A stretch of DNA of 44,171 nucleotides from Candidatus Hydrogenedentota bacterium (GTDB lineage Bacteria > Hydrogenedentota > Hydrogenedentia > Hydrogenedentales > JAEUWI01), in the NCBI GenBank assembly GCA_016791475.1, contig JAEUWI010000056.1, positions 1 through 44,171 on the forward strand. The letters are read 5' to 3'. The position numbers and the translations under genes were made by a program. Positions 1-28,458 of the stretch are shown here, in pieces; positions within the stretch are counted from its first letter, which is position 1; every line of letters starts with the position of its first letter. The notes below the pieces were generated by a model that made no database searches, was not told where the DNA came from, and was given only the letters and a program-made list of their open reading frames with translations.

Positions 1-79
1 CATACGACCCATACGACCCATAAGACCCATAAGACCCATAAGACCCATAAGACCCATAAGACCCATAAGACCCATAACC
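1..79. repeat. 9-bp tandem repeat array
   Basis: Eight perfect-length 9-mers run head to tail: two copies of CATACGACC, then six of CATAAGACC, then a partial copy. The array is cut by the window edge, so the true copy number is unknown. It lies just beyond the terminator of the large surface-protein gene. The only variation is one base (A or C) at position 5. No open frame or known mobile element explains it. It belongs with the other short tandem arrays in this window. Confidence 0.95.
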
Positions 80-113
80 AAAACGGCGGCGCGCAATCTC
101 TTGCGCGCCGCCG
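80..113 (-). terminator. Rho-independent terminator of the giant surface-protein gene
   Basis: A perfect 12-bp GC stem (84-95 with 102-113) with a 6-base loop is followed, on the minus strand, by four T residues (complement of 80-83). It sits 24 bases past the stop codon of the 137-4150 gene, so it is the natural end of that transcript. The T run is short, but the stem is very strong. Confidence 0.8.
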
Positions 114-136
114 CCACGAAACGTTACGGAATCAAA

Positions 137-3100
137 TCAGCCCTTGCGAGTCAGGCGCCGCTTGCGGCGCGCGATAAACATCGCCGCCATGGACAGCACC
201 AGCACCCCGAAGAGCACCGGCGACGTCAACGCCAGCTTGCCCAGGAAAACCACCGGCACGAGGGCCAGGCGGACCATCGCCGCGAGCGCGGGGCTCTGGG
301 CGACCCAATCGGCAATTGCCGGGCTCACGTGGTAGTACACATCCACGAACGCCGTGCCCGCCGCATTGTCCAGCAGGTAGGTATCGCGCACATCCCGGAG
401 CACGTCAATCTGAGCAGTCATGGGCGTGTCATAAGCCGCCGTGGCGATGAAGCAGGGGCCACCGCCGCCGCCACCCGAGCCGCCGGCGATCAGGCCAAGC
501 AAGGCAAGGAGGAAGCCCAGCAGCGACACGATCGGCAGGTCCTGACCCTGGCGCGGCGTGTATTCAAAGAATGCCGGCAGGGTGACCGCCGCCGTGTCCG
601 GATTGGAGGCGAGGAAGATCGTCACATCCGTGATGCCCGTGCGGTTGGTGGCCGGCGTGCGGAACGTGAACGTCGTTTCGCTGGCGCCCGGAACAGACAC
701 GAAGTCGTCCGATTCCACCGTGACACTGACCTGCTTCGAGGCCTGCGTCGTGGTCAGCGTTACGTGGTCCACCCAGGCCAGACCGCCTTCAGGCGAAACA
801 ATCGTGACTTCCGTGCCGCCCGCCGTCGTTCCGTCGAAGGAAACATCGGCGTTCGCATCCAGAATCGAATCCACCAGGGCGTCCGGGATGCTCGCGCCGC
901 GTCGCAGCGAGAAGCCGTTCAGGCTGTAGAGCCGCGCCTCGTTCACCGCGTCGATCGGGGTGTTATCCGTGACCGTCGGTGTCAAGCTCGGGTCGACTTC
1001 GGTATTCAACAGACCCGACTGGTAGGCCACCATCGCCGTTTCGGGCACGGTCAGCTCGCCGGTCGTATAGTCGAAGGTGCTTTCCACGCCGAACCACGTG
1101 AGGCCGGTGCGAACCACGCCCGCGTTGAAGTCGTCGTCGTTGGTAACGAAGGACAGCTCGATGGGGGCCAGCTCAATCGGCTCGCCCGTGGTCGAGTCGA
1201 TGACGGGCTCGCCACTCTCGTCCAGCAAGTAGCGCGACCGCGCGCCCGCGGCGAAGGCGCCGCCGGTGGCCGGGTCCGTCGACGGAAGTCCGACGGAGGG
1301 CGTGTTGTTCTTGGCGTCGCTGAAGTCAATGGGCTCATAGAAGTACAGGGCGAAGTCGTTGATGCCGCCGCCCAGCGTTGAGCCGGCGTCCACACCCTGT
1401 CCGTTGAGCACGGTGTCGATAGCGCCGGTGCCCAGCGGACCATCGGTCTGCTTTGCGCCCGTGGAGGCCGTGCGCACAATGCCGTAGGTGCGACCGCCAT
1501 TCGCCACCGACGGAATCGTGATGGTGCCGAAGTCGTTTTCGCCCAGCGCCACATCCAGCGAGGCCACGCCCTCGTCACCATCGTAGTAGTAGGCCGTCGT
1601 GTTGACGGTCTCGCCACGGGTGTATCGGTTGTAGCGGAAGCTGTTGAAGATGGACGCCGTCTCCTGGCCGTTGTTCGCCACCGTCACCGAAACGTCCACG
1701 AAATCACTGTTGGACATGTCGGGGCTTTCGGGAACAATCACCTCGATCGTGTTGCCGCCATCGCCCACACGGAATCCATCCACTTCGACGCCGCCTATCT
1801 TGATGACGGTGCCTTCGCTCAGATTCTGACCCGTTATCTCGGCCACCACGCCACCGAAAATCCACGCCTCGGCGGGTGTGATTCCGGTGATGACGGCTTC
1901 GCCGACCGTCTGGAACGCCTGAAGCTCACCGATCGCAAGGCGCTGATCGTTGTTGGTGTCCAGGCGGCCAAACTGGTCAACCGTCAGGGACGGATTGTAG
2001 AGTTGCGCTTCCACAAGCGTCAGCAAACCATCGTTGTCCGTGTCCGCCTCGTCAAAGTTCGCGATGAAATCCGCAGCGACTTCCTCGTCGGTCGGCTCAA
2101 CTTCGCCTTCGCCTTCGCCTTCGCCTTCACCTTCACCTTCGCCTTCACCTTCTCCCTCGCCTTCACCTTCTCCCTCACCTTCGCCTTCACCTTCTCCCTC
2201 ACCTTCGCCTTCGCCTTCACCTTCACCTTCACCTTCGCCCTCACCTTCACCGCCCGGCGTGCCGAAGGTCACGGCCAGAACCTGATCCTGATCAATGTTG
2301 AAATTCAGCGTGTTCGCTTCCGTGACGTTCTCGGTCACGTCGAAGCCGCCCAGCAGCACTTCCAGAATCTCCAGGCCTTCGCCCGGAGTGAAGGTCGCAA
2401 CCAGCGCCTCGTCCTTCACATAGATCCCGCCGGAAGTTTCGCCGCCCAGGGCCGCGGGGTCGATGGTTACGGCACCGTCGCCTTCCACTTCGACCGAAAG
2501 TTCCACGGTGGCGGTGAGCGTCGCCGCATCCGTCAGCGTGACGCTGTTGCCTTCATTGCTGTTGTCCACGACCGTAACGGTAACGGGCGTATCCACCGCC
2601 TCGCCGCTGATCACATCCAACGGCAGGGAGGGCGTGGTGACATAAAGCGCGGTCGACGTCGCCGCGATTCCCGTCTGCTTGCCGACCAACTCGATTTCGC
2701 GGAAGGTCGCGGCCACGCCGTTCAGCGTCACCGTCAGGGCTTCGGCGGCATCCGCCGCATTCAGCGGCGTCTCGCCGATGATCGGGAAGGCGCCGTTGAT
2801 GACGATATCGAAATTCCGTTCCGCGGGAAGCAGATCGGGGGTAACGCCGCCCACCTCCAGCGCGGCGGCAAACGGGGCCACCAGCGAAAGGGTCGAAAGG
2901 TTTACATTAATGTCGCCGTCGATGGAAAGGGGCGCGGCGGAAAGGAGGGACCAATCGCCGTCGGCGGCCGATTCCAGCACCACGGCGGAGGCATCACTCG
3001 TGCCGGAGGCCACGCCATAGGCATAGAGCTGCACGCGATCCAGTTCTTCTTCGGGGAATTCATCACCGGCGATGAAAAGATTGACTTCCAGATCACCCAG

Positions 3101-4150
3101 GTCCGATATCGAAGTCATGTCGGCGGTCGAGGTGCCGGCGACGATGCTCATCGCCACGTAGGGAGACCCGGCAAGAATATCCAGCGGCTGCGCGGCGGCA
3201 ACGGCCGTCGCCCACTCGCTCTGGCTTCCACCCGTCGTGTTCTCGTCGATGGCGCCGTTCAGATCGCCAACCACTTCCACCAGGATAAAGGCGGAGTCGC
3301 CTTCCTGAATCAGTCCCTCGGCCAGCAATTCGCTGGTGGTGGGAGCCGTAACCATGACGTTACCGGCGGCCAGAACGATGTCCTGAGCCACACCCTTGCC
3401 GAGGTCGTTCAGATTCGCCATCAGCGCCGTGCGGCTTCCGCCATTCACCGTCACCGTGGCAACGGAGCTCTCCCCGGTGTTCACAAAGGTAAAAGGATCG
3501 TCCGGGAAACCGTTGGCGTCCGCATCGATATCCACCGACTTCAGCGTCAGGGCGATGGCGTCTTCCGCCGCGTTGACCGCCTCATACGTGTAGGTCGAGG
3601 CCTGCTTGGCATCCGCCACCGCGTTGACCAGCGCGTAGATCAGCACCGCCGTCGCCTGGCCGTCCGTGCCGGAAACGAAGCTGCTGAGCGGCAGGGTGCT
3701 GGAGAAATCGGAAAACACGCCGTCCTCCGAGACGACGCCGTCGGCACCCGTGGTGTACACGCCGTCATTCGTCTGCCAGGGCGCAACCTGTTCACCCTCG
3801 TCGTCCGCCTCGTTGGCCACATACGTCACCGTCGTGTCGTTGCCCGAGCCGGGAACCGTGGCGCTGAGCATCAAGTCGATCTCGCCCTCATTCGAGGTCG
3901 GAACCAGAATCGTATCGCCGGTGCTGTAGGGCGTGGAATCCAGCGTTATGACACTGGCGCCTTTATCGGCCAGCGCGCCCCCCTCGTTCAGCAGGATCAT
4001 GTCCAGGAACTGACCGAAGTCAATCCGCCCGTTACTCCCGGCGGCACTGGTACGGTCCGCGTCGTGGGACGGCACCAGGCCGATCCCGAACGCGAGTACC
4101 ACCATCATGCTCACGAGCGATGCGAGCATTAGTTTCTTGCTGGTCCCCAT
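137..4150 (-). CDS. Giant secreted multidomain surface protein (GEGEGE linker, EF-hand pair, IPT/TIG, CFI-box C-terminus)
   Basis: A 1337-residue exported protein. The start at 4150 is preceded by GAGGAG with 8-base spacing and opens with a signal segment (KKLMLASLVSMMVVLAF). Residues about 60-630 are acidic and Thr/Val-rich, typical of stacked beta domains. A Gly-Glu dipeptide linker follows (about 634-683), then two EF-hand-like calcium loops (DTDNDG, DTNNDQ) near 700-740 that resemble a dockerin, then an IPT/TIG-like domain (about 745-835). Near residue 1233 is the motif CFIATAAY, as in CFI-box-type C-terminal domains, and the protein ends with a hydrophobic segment and RRKRR. This layout suits a cell-surface adhesin or matrix protein anchored at its C-terminus. 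The substrate or partner is unknown. It is transcribed from the strong promoter at 4347-4375. Confidence 0.88.
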   Translation of the reverse strand: MGTSKKLMLASLVSMMVVLAFGIGLVPSHDADRTSAAGSNGRIDFGQFLDMILLNEGGALADKGASVITLDSTPYSTGDTILVPTSNEGEIDLMLSATVPGSGNDTTVTYVANEADDEGEQVAPWQTNDGVYTTGADGVVSEDGVFSDFSSTLPLSSFVSGTDGQATAVLIYALVNAVADAKQASTYTYEAVNAAEDAIALTLKSVDIDADANGFPDDPFTFVNTGESSVATVTVNGGSRTALMANLNDLGKGVAQDIVLAAGNVMVTAPTTSELLAEGLIQEGDSAFILVEVVGDLNGAIDENTTGGSQSEWATAVAAAQPLDILAGSPYVAMSIVAGTSTADMTSISDLGDLEVNLFIAGDEFPEEELDRVQLYAYGVASGTSDASAVVLESAADGDWSLLSAAPLSIDGDINVNLSTLSLVAPFAAALEVGGVTPDLLPAERNFDIVINGAFPIIGETPLNAADAAEALTVTLNGVAATFREIELVGKQTGIAATSTALYVTTPSLPLDVISGEAVDTPVTVTVVDNSNEGNSVTLTDAATLTATVELSVEVEGDGAVTIDPAALGGETSGGIYVKDEALVATFTPGEGLEILEVLLGGFDVTENVTEANTLNFNIDQDQVLAVTFGTPGGEGEGEGEGEGEGEGEGEGEGEGEGEGEGEGEGEGEGEGEGEGEGEGEGEVEPTDEEVAADFIANFDEADTDNDGLLTLVEAQLYNPSLTVDQFGRLDTNNDQRLAIGELQAFQTVGEAVITGITPAEAWIFGGVVAEITGQNLSEGTVIKIGGVEVDGFRVGDGGNTIEVIVPESPDMSNSDFVDVSVTVANNGQETASIFNSFRYNRYTRGETVNTTAYYYDGDEGVASLDVALGENDFGTITIPSVANGGRTYGIVRTASTGAKQTDGPLGTGAIDTVLNGQGVDAGSTLGGGINDFALYFYEPIDFSDAKNNTPSVGLPSTDPATGGAFAAGARSRYLLDESGEPVIDSTTGEPIELAPIELSFVTNDDDFNAGVVRTGLTWFGVESTFDYTTGELTVPETAMVAYQSGLLNTEVDPSLTPTVTDNTPIDAVNEARLYSLNGFSLRRGASIPDALVDSILDANADVSFDGTTAGGTEVTIVSPEGGLAWVDHVTLTTTQASKQVSVTVESDDFVSVPGASETTFTFRTPATNRTGITDVTIFLASNPDTAAVTLPAFFEYTPRQGQDLPIVSLLGFLLALLGLIAGGSGGGGGGPCFIATAAYDTPMTAQIDVLRDVRDTYLLDNAAGTAFVDVYYHVSPAIADWVAQSPALAAMVRLALVPVVFLGKLALTSPVLFGVLVLSMAAMFIARRKRRLTRKG
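2100..2252. repeat. Coding microsatellite encoding the Gly-Glu linker
   Basis: On the minus strand about 25 consecutive Gly-Glu codon pairs alternate as GGC/GGT/GGA-GAA/GAG. The plus strand shows hexamers such as CTTCGC, CTTCAC and CTCCCT. The synonymous variation shows the array is not a fresh perfect expansion, although 12- to 30-base blocks recur. The in-frame hexamer unit means that slippage changes linker length without shifting frame. Confidence 0.93.
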
Positions 4151-4500
4151 TCTGGCTTCTCCTCTACACCGTTGGTATTGCTCAGGATACGCAGACGCCC
4201 CACGTCGCGGAGACAAAGGGACCACCTGTCGTAACGCTTTCAAGTCTGGGTTAGAAATTGCACTTGAGAAAGTCCCCTCCGACCCCGAAACGGGTCTCGC
4301 AGGCCGATACTGAGGCGGACATAACACACCAATTCTGGTTTTGCTTAGTATAGATAAGCGCTAAAACCTTGTCAACACTTTATCTGGCGGGGGAAACACA
4401 TAACCATATATTCCGCCGCGCAGCCTCATGGATGACCACCCGCACAGTGCGACAGATGCGCATTATGCCCTCCGGCCGGTTTCCCGGGGGAACCGCCGCG
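4151..4500. other. Leader and intergenic region without a gene
   Basis: Apart from the promoter at 4347-4375, this holds a leader of about 190 bases for the surface-protein mRNA and then about 125 bases up to the lgt stop. I see no open frame with a ribosome site and no recognisable riboswitch core. The long GC-rich leader could fold, but I could not identify a named element. Confidence 0.6.
4347..4375 (-). promoter_or_regulatory. Near-consensus sigma70 promoter
   Basis: On the minus strand TTGACA (4375-4370) and TATACT (4352-4347) are separated by exactly 17 bases. The predicted start of transcription is near 4340, giving a leader of about 190 bases before the surface-protein start at 4150. 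This is the closest match to the vegetative consensus that I found in the window. Confidence 0.85.
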
Positions 4501-5361
4501 CTATTTCTCGCTGGAGGCCGGGCCCGCACTGACCGGTGCCCGCCAGATCGTCTGGAACAGAACCACATAGGTACAGGCCGCGCTCAGAAACAGGCCCAGG
4601 GCCACCGCCTGACTCACGGTCATGAACCCGAAAACGGACCGCACGCTTTCCCCCCGGAAGGACTCGTCGGTGAAACGCAGGATACCGTAGAGCAACGGAT
4701 ACAGCAGCATCACGGAGCCGTCGTACTTCTTGTGCTTGTAGGCGTAGCGCATGACGAGAAAGATGCAGAAGAGACCGCAGGACTCGTAGAGCTGGGTGGG
4801 GTGAACCGGCAGGGAATGTTCCGCGGAGCGGGTGATCAGGCCATCTTCCAGTTGCCGTCGCCAGGCCAGGCTGAATTTGGGAAAAGAAACGCCGGTGAAG
4901 GCATCCGTGGGATATCCCCAGCAACAGCCGTTAAAGAAGCAGCCAAGTCGGGCAATGGAGTGGCCCAGAGGCAGAAAGGGCAGGCCCACATCGCCCATCT
5001 TCAGGAAGGGCACGCGCTTGTACTTGATGTACGAGATCCCCCCAATCACCCCGCCGATCAGACCGCCAAAGAAGACCTGGCCCCCCTCCCACAGGAAGAA
5101 CACACGGTACCACTGGTAGGGATTTCCCTCGTCATCCACCCAGGTGAGTCCGTACTGGAGATACCAGTAGATCTTGGCACCCAGCAGCGCGCCAAAAAAG
5201 ATCCAGACCCCGCCCGCGGGCGTTACGTTGAAGGGGTGCTCCAACTTATAGTTCTCGCGCACGGCAAGCAGCACACCGACCAGAAAGGCGATGGCCGTGG
5301 CGACCGTGTAGGCGTGGAAGTCCATATTTAAACTGTCGATGGAGAACAGGGTTGGGTTCAT
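4501..5361 (-). CDS. lgt: Phosphatidylglycerol--prolipoprotein diacylglyceryl transferase
   Basis: Lgt moves a diacylglyceryl group from phosphatidylglycerol onto the lipobox cysteine of prolipoproteins in the inner membrane, the first step of lipoprotein maturation. The 286-residue product has several membrane segments, the GGLIGG turn (99-104), the family signature region HSIARLGCFFNG (134-145) with its conserved Arg, and HPTQLYES (187-194). Length is normal. The first Met is kept as start although the ribosome site (AGAGG) is rather distant; Met13 is an alternative. It lies between two surface-protein genes on the same strand. Many predicted substrates are in this window: the lipoproteins at 11680, 12455, 18960, 30959, 32691 and 37163. 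Confidence 0.95.
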   Translation of the reverse strand: MNPTLFSIDSLNMDFHAYTVATAIAFLVGVLLAVRENYKLEHPFNVTPAGGVWIFFGALLGAKIYWYLQYGLTWVDDEGNPYQWYRVFFLWEGGQVFFGGLIGGVIGGISYIKYKRVPFLKMGDVGLPFLPLGHSIARLGCFFNGCCWGYPTDAFTGVSFPKFSLAWRRQLEDGLITRSAEHSLPVHPTQLYESCGLFCIFLVMRYAYKHKKYDGSVMLLYPLLYGILRFTDESFRGESVRSVFGFMTVSQAVALGLFLSAACTYVVLFQTIWRAPVSAGPASSEK

Positions 5362-22093: not shown

Positions 22094-22513
22094 TTAACTT
22101 TCCTTCGCTTTCGCCTGCTGCTGCCCACCCTGGACCTTGGCAGGGGCCTGGGATTCGCCGGGCGCTTTCATCGTGCACTTCCCTTCGAAAAGCACGCCCT
22201 CGGCAATGCTCACGCGGGGCGAGGTGATGTCCCCCACCACTTTACCGCCGGCACAGATCTCCAGGCGTTCATGGGCGAGGACATTGCCGTGGACTTCGCC
22301 GCTGATTATGATCTGGCCCGCGACGAGGTCGGCCTTCAGCTTGCCGCTTTCCTGAACAACGATGGTATCGCCGCTCTGGATATTGCCCGAGACCGTTCCT
22401 TCGATGCGGATCGTGCCCTGAGAGCTGATATCGCCTTTTATCGTGGTGCCCTGGCCGATGATGCTTACAACTTTGTTCTCGTTGTAGGTCTTCGATTTCC
22501 GTGATTCGAGCAT
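22094..22513 (-). CDS. Bactofilin (polymer-forming cytoskeletal protein)
   Basis: A 139-residue protein with the beta-helix bactofilin core: VSIIGQGTTIKGDISSQGTI, RIEGTVSGNIQSGD, QIIISGEVHGNVLAHERLEI, VVGDITSPRVSIAEGVLFEG. Bactofilins polymerise without nucleotide and often localise cell-wall enzymes. A charged N-terminal tail (MLESRKSKTYNENK) and a Gln/Ala/Lys-rich C-terminus flank the core, the usual layout. The ATG at 22513 is preferred over an upstream in-frame start because the bactofilin tail begins there. It lies downstream of an M23 peptidase gene, a linkage well known from other bacteria such as CcmA with Csd proteins. Confidence 0.94.
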   Translation of the reverse strand: MLESRKSKTYNENKVVSIIGQGTTIKGDISSQGTIRIEGTVSGNIQSGDTIVVQESGKLKADLVAGQIIISGEVHGNVLAHERLEICAGGKVVGDITSPRVSIAEGVLFEGKCTMKAPGESQAPAKVQGGQQQAKAKES

Positions 22514-22691
22514 GTCAGGTTTCCGTTGTTGCGACCGTGGGGCGCGTTGGGCCGGATGGGACGCGTGCGTCAACCCGCGACACACGCCAGACGGGGCCGC
22601 GAGCACCAGCCTTTACAGGATAGTAGTGCCCTGAATTGTACATGAATGGCCAAAAAATTGCGAGAAGGCGACCAGCCCCCCGGATTGCCCC

Positions 22692-23699
22692 CTACTCGGT
22701 CATATACTTCTCACTGTCAACCGGCGCGCCATCCACGTGTACTTCGTAGTGGAGGTGGGCTCCCGTACTGCGACCCGTGCTGCCCACATTGCCAATTACG
22801 GTCGACCGATCCACCACATCCCCTACCTGGGAACTAATCTTGGAAAGGTGGGCGTACCAGGTTTCCAGGCCACCGCCATGGTCGATCTTGATGAGATTTC
22901 CATAAAACTGGTCATATTCGGCAAAGGTTACCGTACCCCGGGCCGTCGCGCGCACTTTGGTGCCCGTCGGCGCGGCCACGTCCGTGCCATCGTGATGGCG
23001 CACACGGCGGTGGAAGGGATCGCGGCGATAGCCGAAACGAGAGGTGATCTTGCCCGCGCCATTCACCAGCGGCCAGATGGCCGGGATGCGGGTCAGCTTG
23101 TCCTTCATGGCCTTCCCGTCCATCACCAGCTCGGATAGACTCTTCTGCCGGACGCGAATTTCCTGAAGAATCAGGTCGGCCGAGGGGCGGGACATGCCAT
23201 AGATGATGTGGGGCGGGCGAAACTCGTGGCCAATACCGGCGTGCGCCACGGGCTGATAGCCCGAAGGAGCGCCGCCCTGCCCGCCGCCCGTGGCGGTGGA
23301 TTCCGTCTCCTCGCCCTTTTCCCGGGGCGCGATACCCGTGATGGAACGGGCCTGAGCCTCCATGTCGAGGAGTTCGGTCAATTCCGCGGTGATGGTGGCG
23401 AGATTCGCTTCATACTCCCGGCGGAGCGATTCCTCCAGCGCGCGCAGGTCCTTTTCCGTATCCACGGGGGCCTCGGCCACGGGCTGGGGGGCTTCCAGTT
23501 CCCACTGGAGCGTCTTGTTCTGCTGTTGGAGCACCGCCGCCTGAGCGGCGATGACCTGATGACGCTGGAAAAAGAATGCCGAAAAGAAAGCCAGCAGGGA
23601 GAGTACCGCAATTCCGGTCCAGAAATGATAGGCGGCCAGGGAAAATGTCTGTGTGCCGCCCCGATCCTGGGGAATAAGCATCACGGTCCAACGTTTCAT
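22692..23699 (-). CDS. Membrane-anchored M23 (LytM-type) peptidoglycan endopeptidase
   Basis: A 335-residue cell-wall hydrolase. The N-terminus is short and cytoplasmic with one membrane segment (about 25-46), followed by a coiled coil (about 50-115) and a linker. The M23 zinc domain lies at about 220-335: SRFGYRRDPFHRRVRHHDGT with the HxGxD metal site (HDGTD), LIKIDHGGGLETWYAHLS, and the HLHYEV site. All four metal or catalytic positions seem present, so it should cleave peptide cross-links. The promoter is at 23848-23877. Together with the downstream bactofilin it forms a likely cell-shape module. Confidence 0.93.
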   Translation of the reverse strand: MKRWTVMLIPQDRGGTQTFSLAAYHFWTGIAVLSLLAFFSAFFFQRHQVIAAQAAVLQQQNKTLQWELEAPQPVAEAPVDTEKDLRALEESLRREYEANLATITAELTELLDMEAQARSITGIAPREKGEETESTATGGGQGGAPSGYQPVAHAGIGHEFRPPHIIYGMSRPSADLILQEIRVRQKSLSELVMDGKAMKDKLTRIPAIWPLVNGAGKITSRFGYRRDPFHRRVRHHDGTDVAAPTGTKVRATARGTVTFAEYDQFYGNLIKIDHGGGLETWYAHLSKISSQVGDVVDRSTVIGNVGSTGRSTGAHLHYEVHVDGAPVDSEKYMTE

Positions 23700-23953: not shown

Positions 23954-24559
23954 TTAATTTCCGCTTTTGGCGGCACGACGCGCGCCACTACCCTTCTCCG
24001 ATGACTTCGTCTTCACAAACTCCACAAACATCTTGATGAAGTCTTCCGGGGCTTTGCCTTCATAGTCCCGACTGTTGAACACCTCCACCAGATCATTGTA
24101 ATCACGCTGGTGAATGCTGTCATCCAGATAGAGTTCGTACAGCGGAATGGTATCCACTTTGCCATCCCGGTGCTTCGGGCAGCCCACATCCTTATGGAGT
24201 GAAAAGCCCTTGAAGGAGCCGTCCCGGAACTCTTCGAGCTTGAAAGGGTACAGTCGGCAGAGGATGGGGCGGGATTCGTAGATCGAGCAATAGCGGGTCT
24301 TCTTGTCGAGGAAGTGGCAGCCCTTCTTGCCCCGCTTCAGGGCCATCATGAAGCGTTCCTTCCCAACCTTCAGCCAGGTGGGATCGCCCTTGGTCACCCC
24401 CTGAATCTCACCCGGTCGGATGAACTCCAGAAACTCATAGGGATCCGCCCCTTCCTGCCGTACGATGCGGATGACGTCCCAGGGCGTGGGAAGGCATACC
24501 ACGTCGGTGCAACAATGTCCGGTGTGATGGCAGGAAAAACTTACGGTGTCTCGTCCCAT
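23954..24559 (-). CDS. YkgJ-family cysteine-cluster protein
   Basis: A 201-residue cytoplasmic protein with the CxxxxxCC and CxxY...CR pattern of the zinc/iron-chelating CxxCxxCC (UPF0153/YkgJ) family: CHHTGHCC near the N-terminus, KKGCHFLDKKTRYCSIY, and RPILCRLYPF. It probably binds a metal or Fe-S cluster; no precise role is known. ATG 24559 is chosen because the cysteine cluster follows at once; upstream in-frame sequence is not protein-like. The C-terminus is Lys/Ser-rich. It is divergent from the small peptide gene at 24844. Confidence 0.88.
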   Translation of the reverse strand: MGRDTVSFSCHHTGHCCTDVVCLPTPWDVIRIVRQEGADPYEFLEFIRPGEIQGVTKGDPTWLKVGKERFMMALKRGKKGCHFLDKKTRYCSIYESRPILCRLYPFKLEEFRDGSFKGFSLHKDVGCPKHRDGKVDTIPLYELYLDDSIHQRDYNDLVEVFNSRDYEGKAPEDFIKMFVEFVKTKSSEKGSGARRAAKSGN

Positions 24560-24703: not shown

Positions 24704-24712
24704 TGGTATACT
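24704..24712 (+). promoter_or_regulatory. Extended -10 promoter upstream of the small peptide gene
   Basis: TGGTATACT is an extended -10 element (TG-N-TATACT). The -35 region is poor (TGTTTT or GTGTTT), as extended -10 promoters allow. Transcription would start near 24719, giving a leader of about 125 bases to the peptide start. Confidence 0.5.
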
Positions 24713-24843
24713 GTGAACACTAAGAAACGGGGACGCTGGCAAGAAGGTGCGCCGGTGTTGAAGGGTGTACTACAGTATCGCCGGTTTCATCGGACGAACC
24801 ACGTCCATAGTTGCGTCAAGAAAAATTCTAAGGAGACAAGAGC

Positions 24844-24951
24844 ATGGCACCGAAGATGGCATTTAACATTGAAGTTGTTCTGGACGTAATCCTTCAGATC
24901 GTGGCCGTGATCGAAGCAATTCTCGGTCTCTTCGGCATCCAGAGCCTCTAA
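24844..24951 (+). CDS. 35-residue hydrophobic acidic peptide
   Basis: A short frame with a strong ribosome site: AAGGAG, 8 bases, ATG. The product begins MAPKMAFNIE and ends GLFGIQSL. Between are almost only Val, Ile, Leu and Ala, with Glu10, Asp14, Gln18 and Glu24. These four fall within about 120 degrees on a helical wheel, making one acidic stripe on an otherwise hydrophobic helix. Net charge is about -2. It could be a small membrane protein or an amphipathic surface-active peptide. I recognise no family. It is the only open frame in this 500-base gap with a good ribosome site. It is too short for many gene finders. Confidence 0.62.
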   Translation: MAPKMAFNIEVVLDVILQIVAVIEAILGLFGIQSL

Positions 24952-24994: not shown

Positions 24995-25039
24995 AAAAAG
25001 AATTACCCGCCCGGAACTCCCTGGGGTTTTCCGGGCGGG
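24995..25039 (-). terminator. Rho-independent terminator of trxB (possibly bidirectional)
   Basis: An 11-bp GC-rich stem (25006-25016 with 25029-25039), 12-base loop, followed on the minus strand by TAATTCTTTTT. It is 24 bases past the trxB stop. On the plus strand it lies 54 bases past the peptide-gene stop and could end that transcript too, though only CTTAAG follows on that side. Confidence 0.85.
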
Positions 25040-25062: not shown

Positions 25063-26010
25063 TCAGCCTTCCTGGGACTCCAGCCAGCGGGTCGCGTCGA
25101 TGGCGGCCATGCAACCGCTGCCCGCGGCGGTGATTGCCTGACGGTAGACGTGGTCCTGCACGTCGCCGCAGGCGAAGACGCCTTCCACGTTCGTGTAGCT
25201 CGTGCCGGGCTTCGTGGCGATGTAATCGTTGTCGTGCAGGTCGATGATGCCCTTGAAGATGTCCGTGTTGGGCTTGTGGCCGATGGCCGCGAAATAGCCC
25301 GTGCACTCCACCTCCCGCGTCTCGCCCGTATTCACATCCTTCAGACGAACACCGGTCACGCCGTCCTTGTCATTCCCCAGCACCTCGTCTACGGTCGTGT
25401 TCCATTCCACCTGCACCTTTTCATGGTTGATAACACGATCACCCATAATCTTGCTCGCCCGGAACTTATCCCGGCGGTGCACCACATGAACCTTGCTGGC
25501 AAACTTCGTGAGAAACAGCGCCTCTTCCATCGCCGTGTCGCCGCCGCCAACCACCACCAGGGGCTTGTTTCGGAAGCGCGGCAGGGCGCCGTCGCAGGTG
25601 GCGCAGGCGGACACGCCGCGGTTCTCAAACTTGGACTCCGACTCCAGGCCCAGGTACTTCGCCGTGGCGCCCGTGGCGATGATCACCGTCTTCGCCTCCC
25701 AGACCTCCTCGCCGGAATAGACCTTGAAGGGGCGGGACGAGAAGTCCACCTTCGTGACCGTCTTGTACAGGAAGCGCGTCCCGAATTTCGCCGCCTGCTT
25801 CTTGAACTGCTCCATCATCTCCGGGCCGGTGACGCCATCGGGATAACCGGGAAAATTCTCCACCTCGGTGGTCGTCATGAGCTGGCCGCCGGGAAGAATA
25901 TCCTTGCTCAGCTCGCCTTCCAACATCAGGGGATTCAGATCGGCCCGCGCTGTATAGAGCGCCGCCGTGTATCCCGCCGGGCCCGAACCAATGATGACAA
26001 CATTTTCCAT
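25063..26010 (-). CDS. trxB: Thioredoxin reductase
   Basis: A 315-residue flavoprotein that passes electrons from NADPH through FAD and a redox dithiol to thioredoxin. It has the FAD-binding [16 protein letters not shown] (8-23), [17 protein letters not shown], the redox site CATC (about 137-140), the NADPH-binding [10 protein letters not shown] and HRRDKFRA, and the closing FACGDVQD...AAGSGCMAA. Length and motifs are standard. The ATG is preceded by GGAG at 9-base spacing. It has its own promoter (26125-26154) and terminator. Confidence 0.97.
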
Positions 26011-26474: not shown

Positions 26475-26624
26475 CCAAACACGGCTTGGCGTATGCGACC
26501 GAAATTGGCGCGAGTATGCTGATATCCGGGGTCCGACGTGCGATCGACTAAGCGACGTTCGTCCATATCCACGAGGGACACGGGCTCCATATCCCGACCT
26601 TCGATGCACACGGAACCAATTGAC

Positions 26625-27776
26625 ATGCCTGATCAGAAACTGACTACCCTGACCGTTTCAGGATTCAAATCATTCGCGGCGTCGGCACCGGACGATTCGA
26701 CCGGCGGGAACCAAATGCGCTTGAGCAATGTGACCGTGCTATTGGGGGCCAATGGCGCGGGCAAGAGCAATGTGGTTACCCTTTTCCGACTGATGGATGC
26801 CATGTTGACGGGTACGCTTCAGGATTTCGTGGGGAGAAATGGCGGGGCAGAGTCCTTACTTCACTTCGGACCGCGCGCCACGCCCCGTCTCACGTTCACG
26901 ATTGAATCCGAATCAGTTGAAATTGCGAGCCGATACACCGTGACCATGTCCGCCGCCGCGCCGGATACGCTCAACATTCCCATAGAAAATTGGGAGGTCC
27001 GACTCAAGAAGTCGAATGTGCACGACTCGTCCGACACGGGAATGGCCGGGCGACTGGAAAGCCACTTGAGTACTGGACGAACCCACAGCCGCGCGTTCGA
27101 CAATGGTCTCCACCGCCTGCTGCGTGGTTGCCGCACATACCAGTTTCACGACACCACAGAGAACGCCCGCATTCGCAAAGCGAGCTATATTGAGGACGCT
27201 GCGCGTCTCAGGGGCGACGCAGGCAATCTCGCGGCTTTCCTTTTTGGATTAAGATTGAACCACAGCGACTACTATGAGCTTATCGTACATACGATACAGC
27301 AGGTGTGTCCTCAGTTTGGCGGGTTCGAGTTGGCGCCCTCAACACTGAATGCGAACTCCATCCTCCTGAATTGGAGAGATCGCACTCGCCTCGACCATCT
27401 CATGGGCCCCCATCAACTTTCCGACGGCACACTTCGTTTCATGGCCTTGGCGACCTTGTTCCTGCAACCCCCGGAACTGCTGCCGCCGGTGATCATCATT
27501 GACGAACCCGAACTCGGCCTCCACCCCATGGCGCTCGCGATTCTCGCCGGTCTCGTGCGCGGTGTGGCGGGCAAATCCCAAGTGATCCTCGCGACTCAAT
27601 CCGAAACGCTCGTTAACCACTTCGAAGTGGACGATATCAGGCCGGTATCCACCGCAAATGGGTCCTCCCGATTTCTACACCTTTCTCTCGCGGACTACGC
27701 GCAATGGCTTGAGAATTACACGCTGGGAGAACTTTGGGAAAAGAACGTATTCGCCGGGGGGCCTCGTTTTGGTTGA
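26625..27776 (+). CDS. ABC-type AAA ATPase (AAA_15/AAA_21-like) of a two-gene module
   Basis: A 383-residue ATPase of the SMC/OLD-like class. Walker A is GANGAGKSN (41-49), the signature is LSDGTLRFMALATLFL, Walker B is VIIIDEPELGLHP, and the switch is VILATQSETLVNHF. The N-terminus LTVSGFKSF is typical of these proteins. All ATPase motifs are intact. Such ATPases act with Toprim-like nucleases or effectors in Gabija-, PARIS- and OLD-type defence. ATG 26625 is chosen by alignment to this N-terminus; Met 26604 is also in frame. It overlaps the downstream DUF4276 gene by 8 bases, so the two are co-translated. The stop is TGA. Confidence 0.92.
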   Translation: MPDQKLTTLTVSGFKSFAASAPDDSTGGNQMRLSNVTVLLGANGAGKSNVVTLFRLMDAMLTGTLQDFVGRNGGAESLLHFGPRATPRLTFTIESESVEIASRYTVTMSAAAPDTLNIPIENWEVRLKKSNVHDSSDTGMAGRLESHLSTGRTHSRAFDNGLHRLLRGCRTYQFHDTTENARIRKASYIEDAARLRGDAGNLAAFLFGLRLNHSDYYELIVHTIQQVCPQFGGFELAPSTLNANSILLNWRDRTRLDHLMGPHQLSDGTLRFMALATLFLQPPELLPPVIIIDEPELGLHPMALAILAGLVRGVAGKSQVILATQSETLVNHFEVDDIRPVSTANGSSRFLHLSLADYAQWLENYTLGELWEKNVFAGGPRFG

Positions 27777-28458
27777 ACTCTACGCGGTAGTGGAAGGGGT
27801 GAGTGAGCAGAACTTCGTGGAGCAGATTCTCGCGGAGCACTTCGCAAAGCGAGGGATTTATATCAGCGCGACACGCGTGGGAAGGCCGGGACACAAGAGT
27901 GGCATTTGCGGCTGGGAGCGCGCCCGAAGGGACATTGTCAATTTCCTCAGGCAGGGCAACCCTGGGCGGCGCGTCTACGTGACGACCATGTTCGACTACT
28001 ACGGGATGCCATACACGTGGCCCGGCAGGGCGCAAGCGGCGGCGAAACACATTCCCGAACGGGCCGCGACAGTGGAAGATGCATTGCTGAACGACATCGC
28101 GGCCCAGCTCAACGACTTGGACCGGAAATTGTTCATTCCCTACGTACAGCTTCACGAGTATGAGGCGCTGATCTTTAGTTCGCCTGGGGCCTTGACTTCC
28201 GAGTTTCCCGGACGTGTTCGGGAGATTAAGGAATTGATTGCGGAGTCTGGTAATTTGGATCCCGAGTCCATAAATGACGGCCCCTCCACCGCCCCTTCCA
28301 AACGGATCGAAGCGCGAATACCCGAATACGCGGGGCGGAAGCCATCCGCGTCGGTAAATGTTCTGCGGGAAATCGGTCTAGTTGAGCTTCGGAACCGGTG
28401 TCCCCATTTTGATCGCTGGCTCTCACGCCTCGAATCGTTGGACTCCGCAAGATCATAG
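27769..28458 (+). CDS. DUF4276-family protein, partner of the AAA ATPase
   Basis: A 229-residue protein that matches DUF4276 throughout: VELYAVVEGVSEQNFVEQIL at the start, VTTMFDYYGMP, FIPYVQLHEYEALIFS, INDGPSTAPSKRIE and CPHFDRWLSRLE. The VEG...F block and the later acidic residues recall a Toprim-like metal site, so a nuclease role is plausible but not proven. The TTG start at 27769 is inside the ATPase gene, with a G-rich stretch (27756-27761) upstream; no ATG gives a family-like N-terminus. The tight overlap indicates translational coupling with the ATPase. Confidence 0.9.
   Translation: MVELYAVVEGVSEQNFVEQILAEHFAKRGIYISATRVGRPGHKSGICGWERARRDIVNFLRQGNPGRRVYVTTMFDYYGMPYTWPGRAQAAAKHIPERAATVEDALLNDIAAQLNDLDRKLFIPYVQLHEYEALIFSSPGALTSEFPGRVREIKELIAESGNLDPESINDGPSTAPSKRIEARIPEYAGRKPSASVNVLREIGLVELRNRCPHFDRWLSRLESLDSARS

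What the first reader, a model, noticed from the sequence alone, without database searches (positions are those of the whole stretch)
24844..24951. Unrecognised 35-residue peptide gene with an optimal ribosome site
AAGGAG-8-ATG leads into a short frame of almost pure Val/Ile/Leu/Ala, with Glu10, Asp14, Gln18 and Glu24 aligned on one helix face. An extended -10 promoter lies upstream and a hairpin downstream. Such a design suits a tiny membrane-integrated or surface-active protein. It is too short for routine annotation, so homologues could be widespread and unnoticed.
Basis: seen in the sequence. Interest (0 to 1): 0.65.

Follow-up and report, generated by a model that had tools for sequence, protein, structure and literature searches.

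The report
Conserved Hydrogenedentota amphipathic-helix mini-protein
The 35-residue reading frame is a real, unannotated gene: it belongs to a family of tiny helical proteins found only in the little-studied bacterial phylum Hydrogenedentota, related to larger sets of small peptides that share a 15-residue start sequence and often sit beside protease and export genes.

Summary
Window 24844-24951 encodes a 35-aa peptide with AAGGAG-8-ATG and an extended -10 (TGGTATACT, 24704-24712). Homologues occur as free-standing short ORFs in about half of the 68 Hydrogenedentota genomes held. The frame is under purifying selection (pN 0.12, pS 0.88 against the closest relative), SD sites are kept (35 of 42), and the extended -10 recurs upstream (16 of 42 against 0.7% background, p 2e-24). 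In 318 genomes of other phyla, hits stay at chance level. The downstream hairpin looks like trxB's terminator, on the other strand. AlphaFold gives one helix (residues 9-30) with a conserved polar stripe (D14, Q18, N/A21, E24).

The peptide is an orphan relative of many short peptides sharing a phylum-specific leader, M[KR]H[LIVT][KRH]x[ILV][ST][RK]xPxxAQ, often in tandem arrays followed by two GNAT acetyltransferases, a CPBP/Rce1-like protease and an ABC-2-type transporter. It keeps only the P-x-x-A core of that leader. Most likely it is a membrane-associated, self-associating helix derived from this system; whether it is exported is open. No experimental data exist.

The parts
24844..24951 (+). 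35-aa peptide gene (ATG to TAA)
   Evidence: conserved frame; pN 0.12 vs pS 0.88 against G002 and 0.21 vs 0.74 against G001
24830..24835 (+). Shine-Dalgarno AAGGAG, 8 nt before ATG
   Evidence: SD core present in 35 of 42 family genes vs 8% of random 14-mers
24704..24712 (+). extended -10 promoter element TGGTATACT; implied 5' UTR about 125 nt
   Evidence: same element upstream of 16 of 42 family genes, at -119 to -133 in G001, G002, G005 and G014
24850..24861 (+). codons for P3-K4-M5-A6, the remnant P-x-x-A core of the phylum's leader motif
   Evidence: alignments; hhalign of the two families Prob 96.1, E 3.3e-9
24868..24933 (+). predicted amphipathic helix, residues 9-30, with conserved L13, D14, L17, Q18
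   Evidence: AlphaFold2 helix 9-30, mean pLDDT 95 and 91 for residues 11-20 and 21-30; Q18 invariant and L13/L17 nearly so in 21 members
25006..25039 (-). GC-rich hairpin with a T-run on the minus strand: probably the trxB terminator, not the peptide's
   Evidence: no terminator scored on the + strand
23954..24559 (-). divergent neighbour: CxxCxxCC (YkgJ-type) protein, PF03692
   Evidence: beside the peptide in about ten relatives
25063..26010 (-). convergent neighbour: thioredoxin reductase (Pyr_redox_2 with a CATC motif)
   Evidence: beside the peptide in about ten relatives

Best explanation
The gene is its own transcription unit and makes a 35-aa peptide that folds as one amphipathic helix (residues 9-30) at or in the cell membrane. 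Its conserved polar stripe (D14, Q18, N/A21, E24) lets copies associate with each other in the bilayer. It is an orphan branch of a Hydrogenedentota family whose other members carry a 15-residue N-terminal leader and often sit in arrays next to two GNAT acetyltransferases, a CPBP/Rce1-like protease and an ABC-2-type exporter. In the window's lineage the leader has shrunk to P-x-x-A, so the peptide most likely acts in the producing cell rather than as a typical exported product. Shown: conserved coding gene, phylum restriction within the genomes searched, promoter and RBS, relation to the leader family, predicted helix. Inferred: membrane location, self-association, lack of export.
For: Purifying selection and conserved frame. 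Profile hits down to 1e-21 in the phylum and chance-level hits outside. SD and promoter conservation. Hydrophobic 19-residue core (mean Kyte-Doolittle 2.47 here, mostly 1.4-2.4 in relatives) with a moderate hydrophobic moment, mostly 0.3-0.55. Helix by AlphaFold. Homology to leader-bearing peptides, with intermediates that carry both a full leader and the helix in G024, G036, G054, G063, G056 and G018. Members of one genus start directly at the helix with no leader (G020, G025, G030), so the helix is the part that is kept. Orphans sit beside unrelated genes in different clades (trxB, ispH/lytB, a DJ-1 gene), which points to a stand-alone role.
Against: No direct evidence of membrane binding, oligomerisation or cellular role. 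Hydrophobicity is compatible with either a transmembrane or a surface helix. The P-x-x-A core is retained in the window and two close relatives, so processing and export in trans by the genome's own cluster (G000:C81) is not excluded. The promoter element may simply be the phylum's general promoter.
Confidence: 0.42

Rival explanations
1. It is still a pre-peptide: the short N-terminus ending in P-x-x-A is recognised, the CPBP/Rce1-like protease removes it and the ABC-2-type transporter exports the helix, as a bacteriocin-like or signalling peptide.
For: The same genome holds a complete array plus GNAT-GNAT-CPBP-ABC-permease cluster. P-x-x-A is constant in the leader set and kept in three genus members. 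GNAT N1 and leader peptides tend to co-occur (48/9/5/6 table, Fisher p 0.011).
Against: The cationic first ten leader residues are missing. The Lys found after the leader in 51 of 51 collected leader peptides is absent here. The genus with G020 has lost the leader completely yet keeps the gene. The P-x-x-A constancy in the leader set was partly imposed by the pattern used to collect it.
Confidence: 0.27
2. It is a membrane-depolarising self-toxin of the TisB kind, held silent by an antisense RNA or by its long 5' UTR.
For: Size, single helix and narrow polar stripe resemble such toxins (own knowledge); a 5' UTR of about 110-125 nt recurs in near relatives.
Against: No antisense promoter over the gene was found; no unusual UTR structure (z -0.18); no Rfam family near its gathering score; no Pfam toxin model hit; conservation at the same place across taxonomic families would be unusual for such toxins.
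Confidence: 0.13
3. It is a small subunit or regulator of a neighbouring enzyme (thioredoxin reductase or the CxxCxxCC protein).
For: Both neighbours are conserved around it in about ten genomes.
Against: It is transcribed convergent to trxB and divergent from the other gene; other clades keep the peptide beside unrelated genes, and many genomes keep the CxxCxxCC gene without the peptide next to it.
Confidence: 0.05
4. The reading frame is accidental and not translated.
For: Very short; not in any family library.
Against: Mostly synonymous change, conserved SD and promoter, frame kept across genera.
Confidence: 0.01

Closest known systems
NCBIfam NF033879 smalltalk protein / Pfam PF20096 DUF6486
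   Same: About 30 aa; weak match over residues 13-34 (E 0.00089, 19.0 bits; Pfam E 0.07).
   Different: Below both curated cut-offs (24.7 and 22.7 bits); only 1 of 34 family members matches at all, and a search with PF20096 finds nothing over its cut-off in the phylum and does not pick out the peptide loci. Not a member.
TisB-type type I toxins
   Same: About 30 aa, single hydrophobic helix with a narrow polar stripe (own knowledge).
   Different: No model hit, no antisense RNA evidence, gene conserved within one phylum at conserved places.
Leader-peptide secretion clusters with a CPBP protease and ABC-2 transporter (e.g. skf in Bacillus, own knowledge), and RiPP GNAT maturases (selidamides, nostolysamides)
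   Same: The relatives' arrays combine short precursors with a shared leader, a CPBP/Rce1-like protease, ABC ATPase and ABC-2-like permease; acylation of Lys in ribosomal peptides is known elsewhere (abstract of PMC13060382).
   Different: The leader matches no library model, no radical SAM or lanthipeptide enzyme was seen among the cluster genes examined, two GNATs lie in the typical cluster, and the leader is restricted to Hydrogenedentota in the genomes searched; the window peptide itself is an orphan without a full leader.

Membership tests
Hydrogenedentota LDxxLQ mini-protein family (defined here) | Free-standing ORF of about 30-57 aa with the LDxxLQ amphipathic helix | tested here: met
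   Founding member; profile E 9.7e-16 (it was a seed). Independent tblastn support.
Hydrogenedentota LDxxLQ mini-protein family (defined here) | Own SD and extended -10 promoter | tested here: met
Leader-peptide family M[KR]H..[ILV][ST][RK]xPxxAQ (defined here) | Full 15-residue leader | tested here: not met
   Only P3-x-x-A6 remains in the window peptide
Leader-peptide family M[KR]H..[ILV][ST][RK]xPxxAQ (defined here) | Common descent with leader-bearing members | tested here: met
   hhalign Prob 96.1, E 3.3e-9; intermediates with both features
Leader-peptide family M[KR]H..[ILV][ST][RK]xPxxAQ (defined here) | Lys after the leader | tested here: not met
   No Lys after position 4; present in 51 of 51 collected leader peptides
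RiPP precursor | Post-translational modification and leader removal | not testable with these tools
   needs mass spectrometry
smalltalk NF033879 / DUF6486 | Score above curated cut-off | tested here: not met
   19.0 < 24.7 bits; 13.2 < 22.7 bits
Type I toxin (TisB-like) | Match to a known toxin family | tested here: not met
   No Pfam toxin family at E<=10; PADLOC none
Type I toxin (TisB-like) | Antisense RNA regulator | tested here: inconclusive
   No antisense promoter in the scan; no transcript data
Type I toxin (TisB-like) | Growth arrest or depolarisation on expression | not testable with these tools
   bench assay needed

The most novel reading that the evidence does not exclude
Hydrogenedentota possess a phylum-wide peptide maturation and export system, unknown so far: many short genes per genome share a new 15-residue leader, and a conserved GNAT-GNAT-CPBP protease-ABC exporter cluster acylates, cleaves and secretes their products; the window gene is a free-living derivative whose helix works without the leader.
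Probability: 0.35. Interest if true: 0.82.

Novelty: new variant of a known kind. Interest (0 to 1): 0.62.

Why it matters
Hydrogenedentota are known here only from metagenome assemblies, and genes this short are easily missed by gene callers. The result shows that one such gene is real and opens onto a phylum-specific class of small peptides with a common leader and dedicated-looking processing genes. That gives a concrete, testable route to new secreted or membrane-active peptides, and a leader profile with which to find them.

Tried and rejected
Spurious ORF: rejected by conservation. smalltalk/DUF6486 membership: below cut-off and not shared by relatives. Structured UTR or known RNA: no. 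Phage or plasmid origin: one phage hit at E 5, no plasmid hit. PDB relative by sequence: nothing below E 0.19. Functional partner of trxB or the CxxCxxCC protein: contexts differ between clades. The first G000-G001 substitution count was misaligned by one codon and is replaced. Some members of the wider alignment A2 are weak profile hits (E 1e-4 to 0.03) that were kept because of length, SD, motif or gene context; the main conclusions do not rest on them.

Full report
OBSERVATION. The peptide is MAPKMAFNIEVVLDVILQIVAVIEAILGLFGIQSL. The implied polar stripe is real on a helical wheel. The hairpin downstream (25006-25039) is strong, but its T-run is on the minus strand and no + strand terminator was scored, so it most likely ends trxB.

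IS IT A GENE? With the 35 residues alone, tblastn finds the frame in G002 (E 1.4e-11), G001 (2.9e-6), G005 (6.7e-6), G013 (9.6e-6) and more. These are short ORFs, nearly all with their own SD. A profile of 21 members hits 33 of the 68 genomes of the phylum at E<=0.01 (best 8e-21), and only 3 of 318 genomes of other phyla, all inside longer ORFs; about 3 are expected by chance. Seeds of the profile are among its hits, but the peptide-only search is independent. Substitutions are mostly synonymous: G000-G002 pS 0.88, pN 0.12; G000-G001 pS 0.74, pN 0.21; other close pairs behave alike. Identity to G002 is 68% in the gene and 41-48% in the flanking intergenic stretches. An SD core precedes 35 of 42 family genes, against 8% of random 14-mers. 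TGNTATA[AC]T occurs in 16 of 42 upstream regions against 0.67% of background windows (binomial p 2e-24; relatedness between genomes is not corrected for); in the nearest relatives it lies 119-133 nt upstream of the start. As far as sequence can show, the gene is translated and has its own promoter.

WHERE. The divergent CxxCxxCC-protein gene (PF03692) was used to name the group: the loci are Candidatus Hydrogenedentota assemblies, apart from a few filed as uncultured bacterium or, once, another phylum. In about ten genomes the peptide lies between that gene and trxB, as in the window; in other clades it lies beside ispH/lytB, near a penicillin-amidase and a DJ-1 gene, or beside other genes. 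G014 has two copies in tandem.

WIDER FAMILY. Weak profile hits led to a second set of short proteins, MKHVRTISRKPAKAQD followed by a helix, homologous to the first (hhalign Prob 96.1, E 3.3e-9). A profile of these hits 55 of 68 genomes at E<=0.1, often as tandem arrays of three or more ORFs, and many further matches cover only the first 15 residues. A leader-only profile hits 66 of 68 Hydrogenedentota genomes at E<=0.3, with more than 100 matches at E<=0.01; in 318 other genomes only three matches reach 0.01, as chance predicts. The 46 seeds are among the former. The leader is M[KR]H[LIVT][KRH]x[ILV][ST][RK]xPxxAQ; 44 of 51 collected leaders have length 15. P and A were required by the collecting pattern, so their constancy is partly imposed; H3, S/T8, R/K9 and Q15 are less so.

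THE CLUSTER. Arrays hold distinct peptides with the same leader (a TGQILxVI helix type, a two-cysteine type, an NKDPxNP type). They are typically followed by two GNAT acetyltransferases, a CPBP/Rce1-like protein (PF02517), an ABC ATPase (PF00005) and an ABC-2-like permease, often next to glutamate-synthase-like genes. The window's own genome has this cluster on another contig, G000:C81 (the permease match is below the Pfam cut-off). One of the GNATs is found at high score in most genomes of the phylum. Five of six genomes of taxonomic family f4 lack it, and those five have no or only weak leader matches. Over all genomes the association is moderate (Fisher p 0.011) and not corrected for relatedness or incomplete genomes. 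All 51 collected leader peptides have at least one Lys after the leader, a possible acylation site; this is inference.

WHAT THE WINDOW PEPTIDE DOES. It keeps the helix and only the P-x-x-A end of the leader, and has no Lys after it. Relatives with an intact MHIR-type leader all have a Lys (6 of 6), the others seldom (7 of 28; p 0.001, counted by eye). Members of genus g10 start directly at the helix. So the conserved part is the helix (AlphaFold: residues 9-30), with Q18 invariant and L13 and L17 nearly so in the first 21 members. I take a membrane-associated, self-associating helix as most likely, and export as the main rival. Both can be tested.

KNOWN FAMILIES. No Pfam, NCBIfam, PHROG or PADLOC family is reached by the window peptide at its cut-off; smalltalk/DUF6486 is a sub-threshold match of this one sequence. 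The paper searches made here found no description of the leader or the cluster, though most subscription journals are not in that library. Comparison with skf-type clusters, TisB and GNAT maturases rests on general knowledge.

Noticed in passing
window 26538-28458 (+): AAA_21 ATPase followed by a DUF4276 protein; both match PADLOC HEC-01A/HEC-01B (E 2e-116 and 3e-65), a candidate anti-phage defence pair.
   Followed up: partly
L139 (G000:C81) 1-5010, minus strand: The window's own genome carries an array of about five leader-bearing short ORFs followed by two GNATs, a CPBP/Rce1-like protein, an ABC ATPase and a permease.
   Followed up: partly
L140 4368-4535 and L142 3913-4083: A solitary leader peptide ending AFYAKTP[DE], conserved between G000 and G001, near a gene that looks like a type II secretion or pilus inner-membrane protein.
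   Followed up: partly
L082 724-1036 (G014:C275): Two diverged copies of the mini-protein in tandem between the CxxCxxCC gene and trxB.
   Followed up: no
upstream regions of the family genes: The -10 element upstream of these genes often reads TGNTATACT rather than TGNTATAAT.
   Followed up: no
window 22094-23699 (-): Bactofilin gene next to an M23 peptidase gene, a pairing known from cell-shape modules.
   Followed up: no
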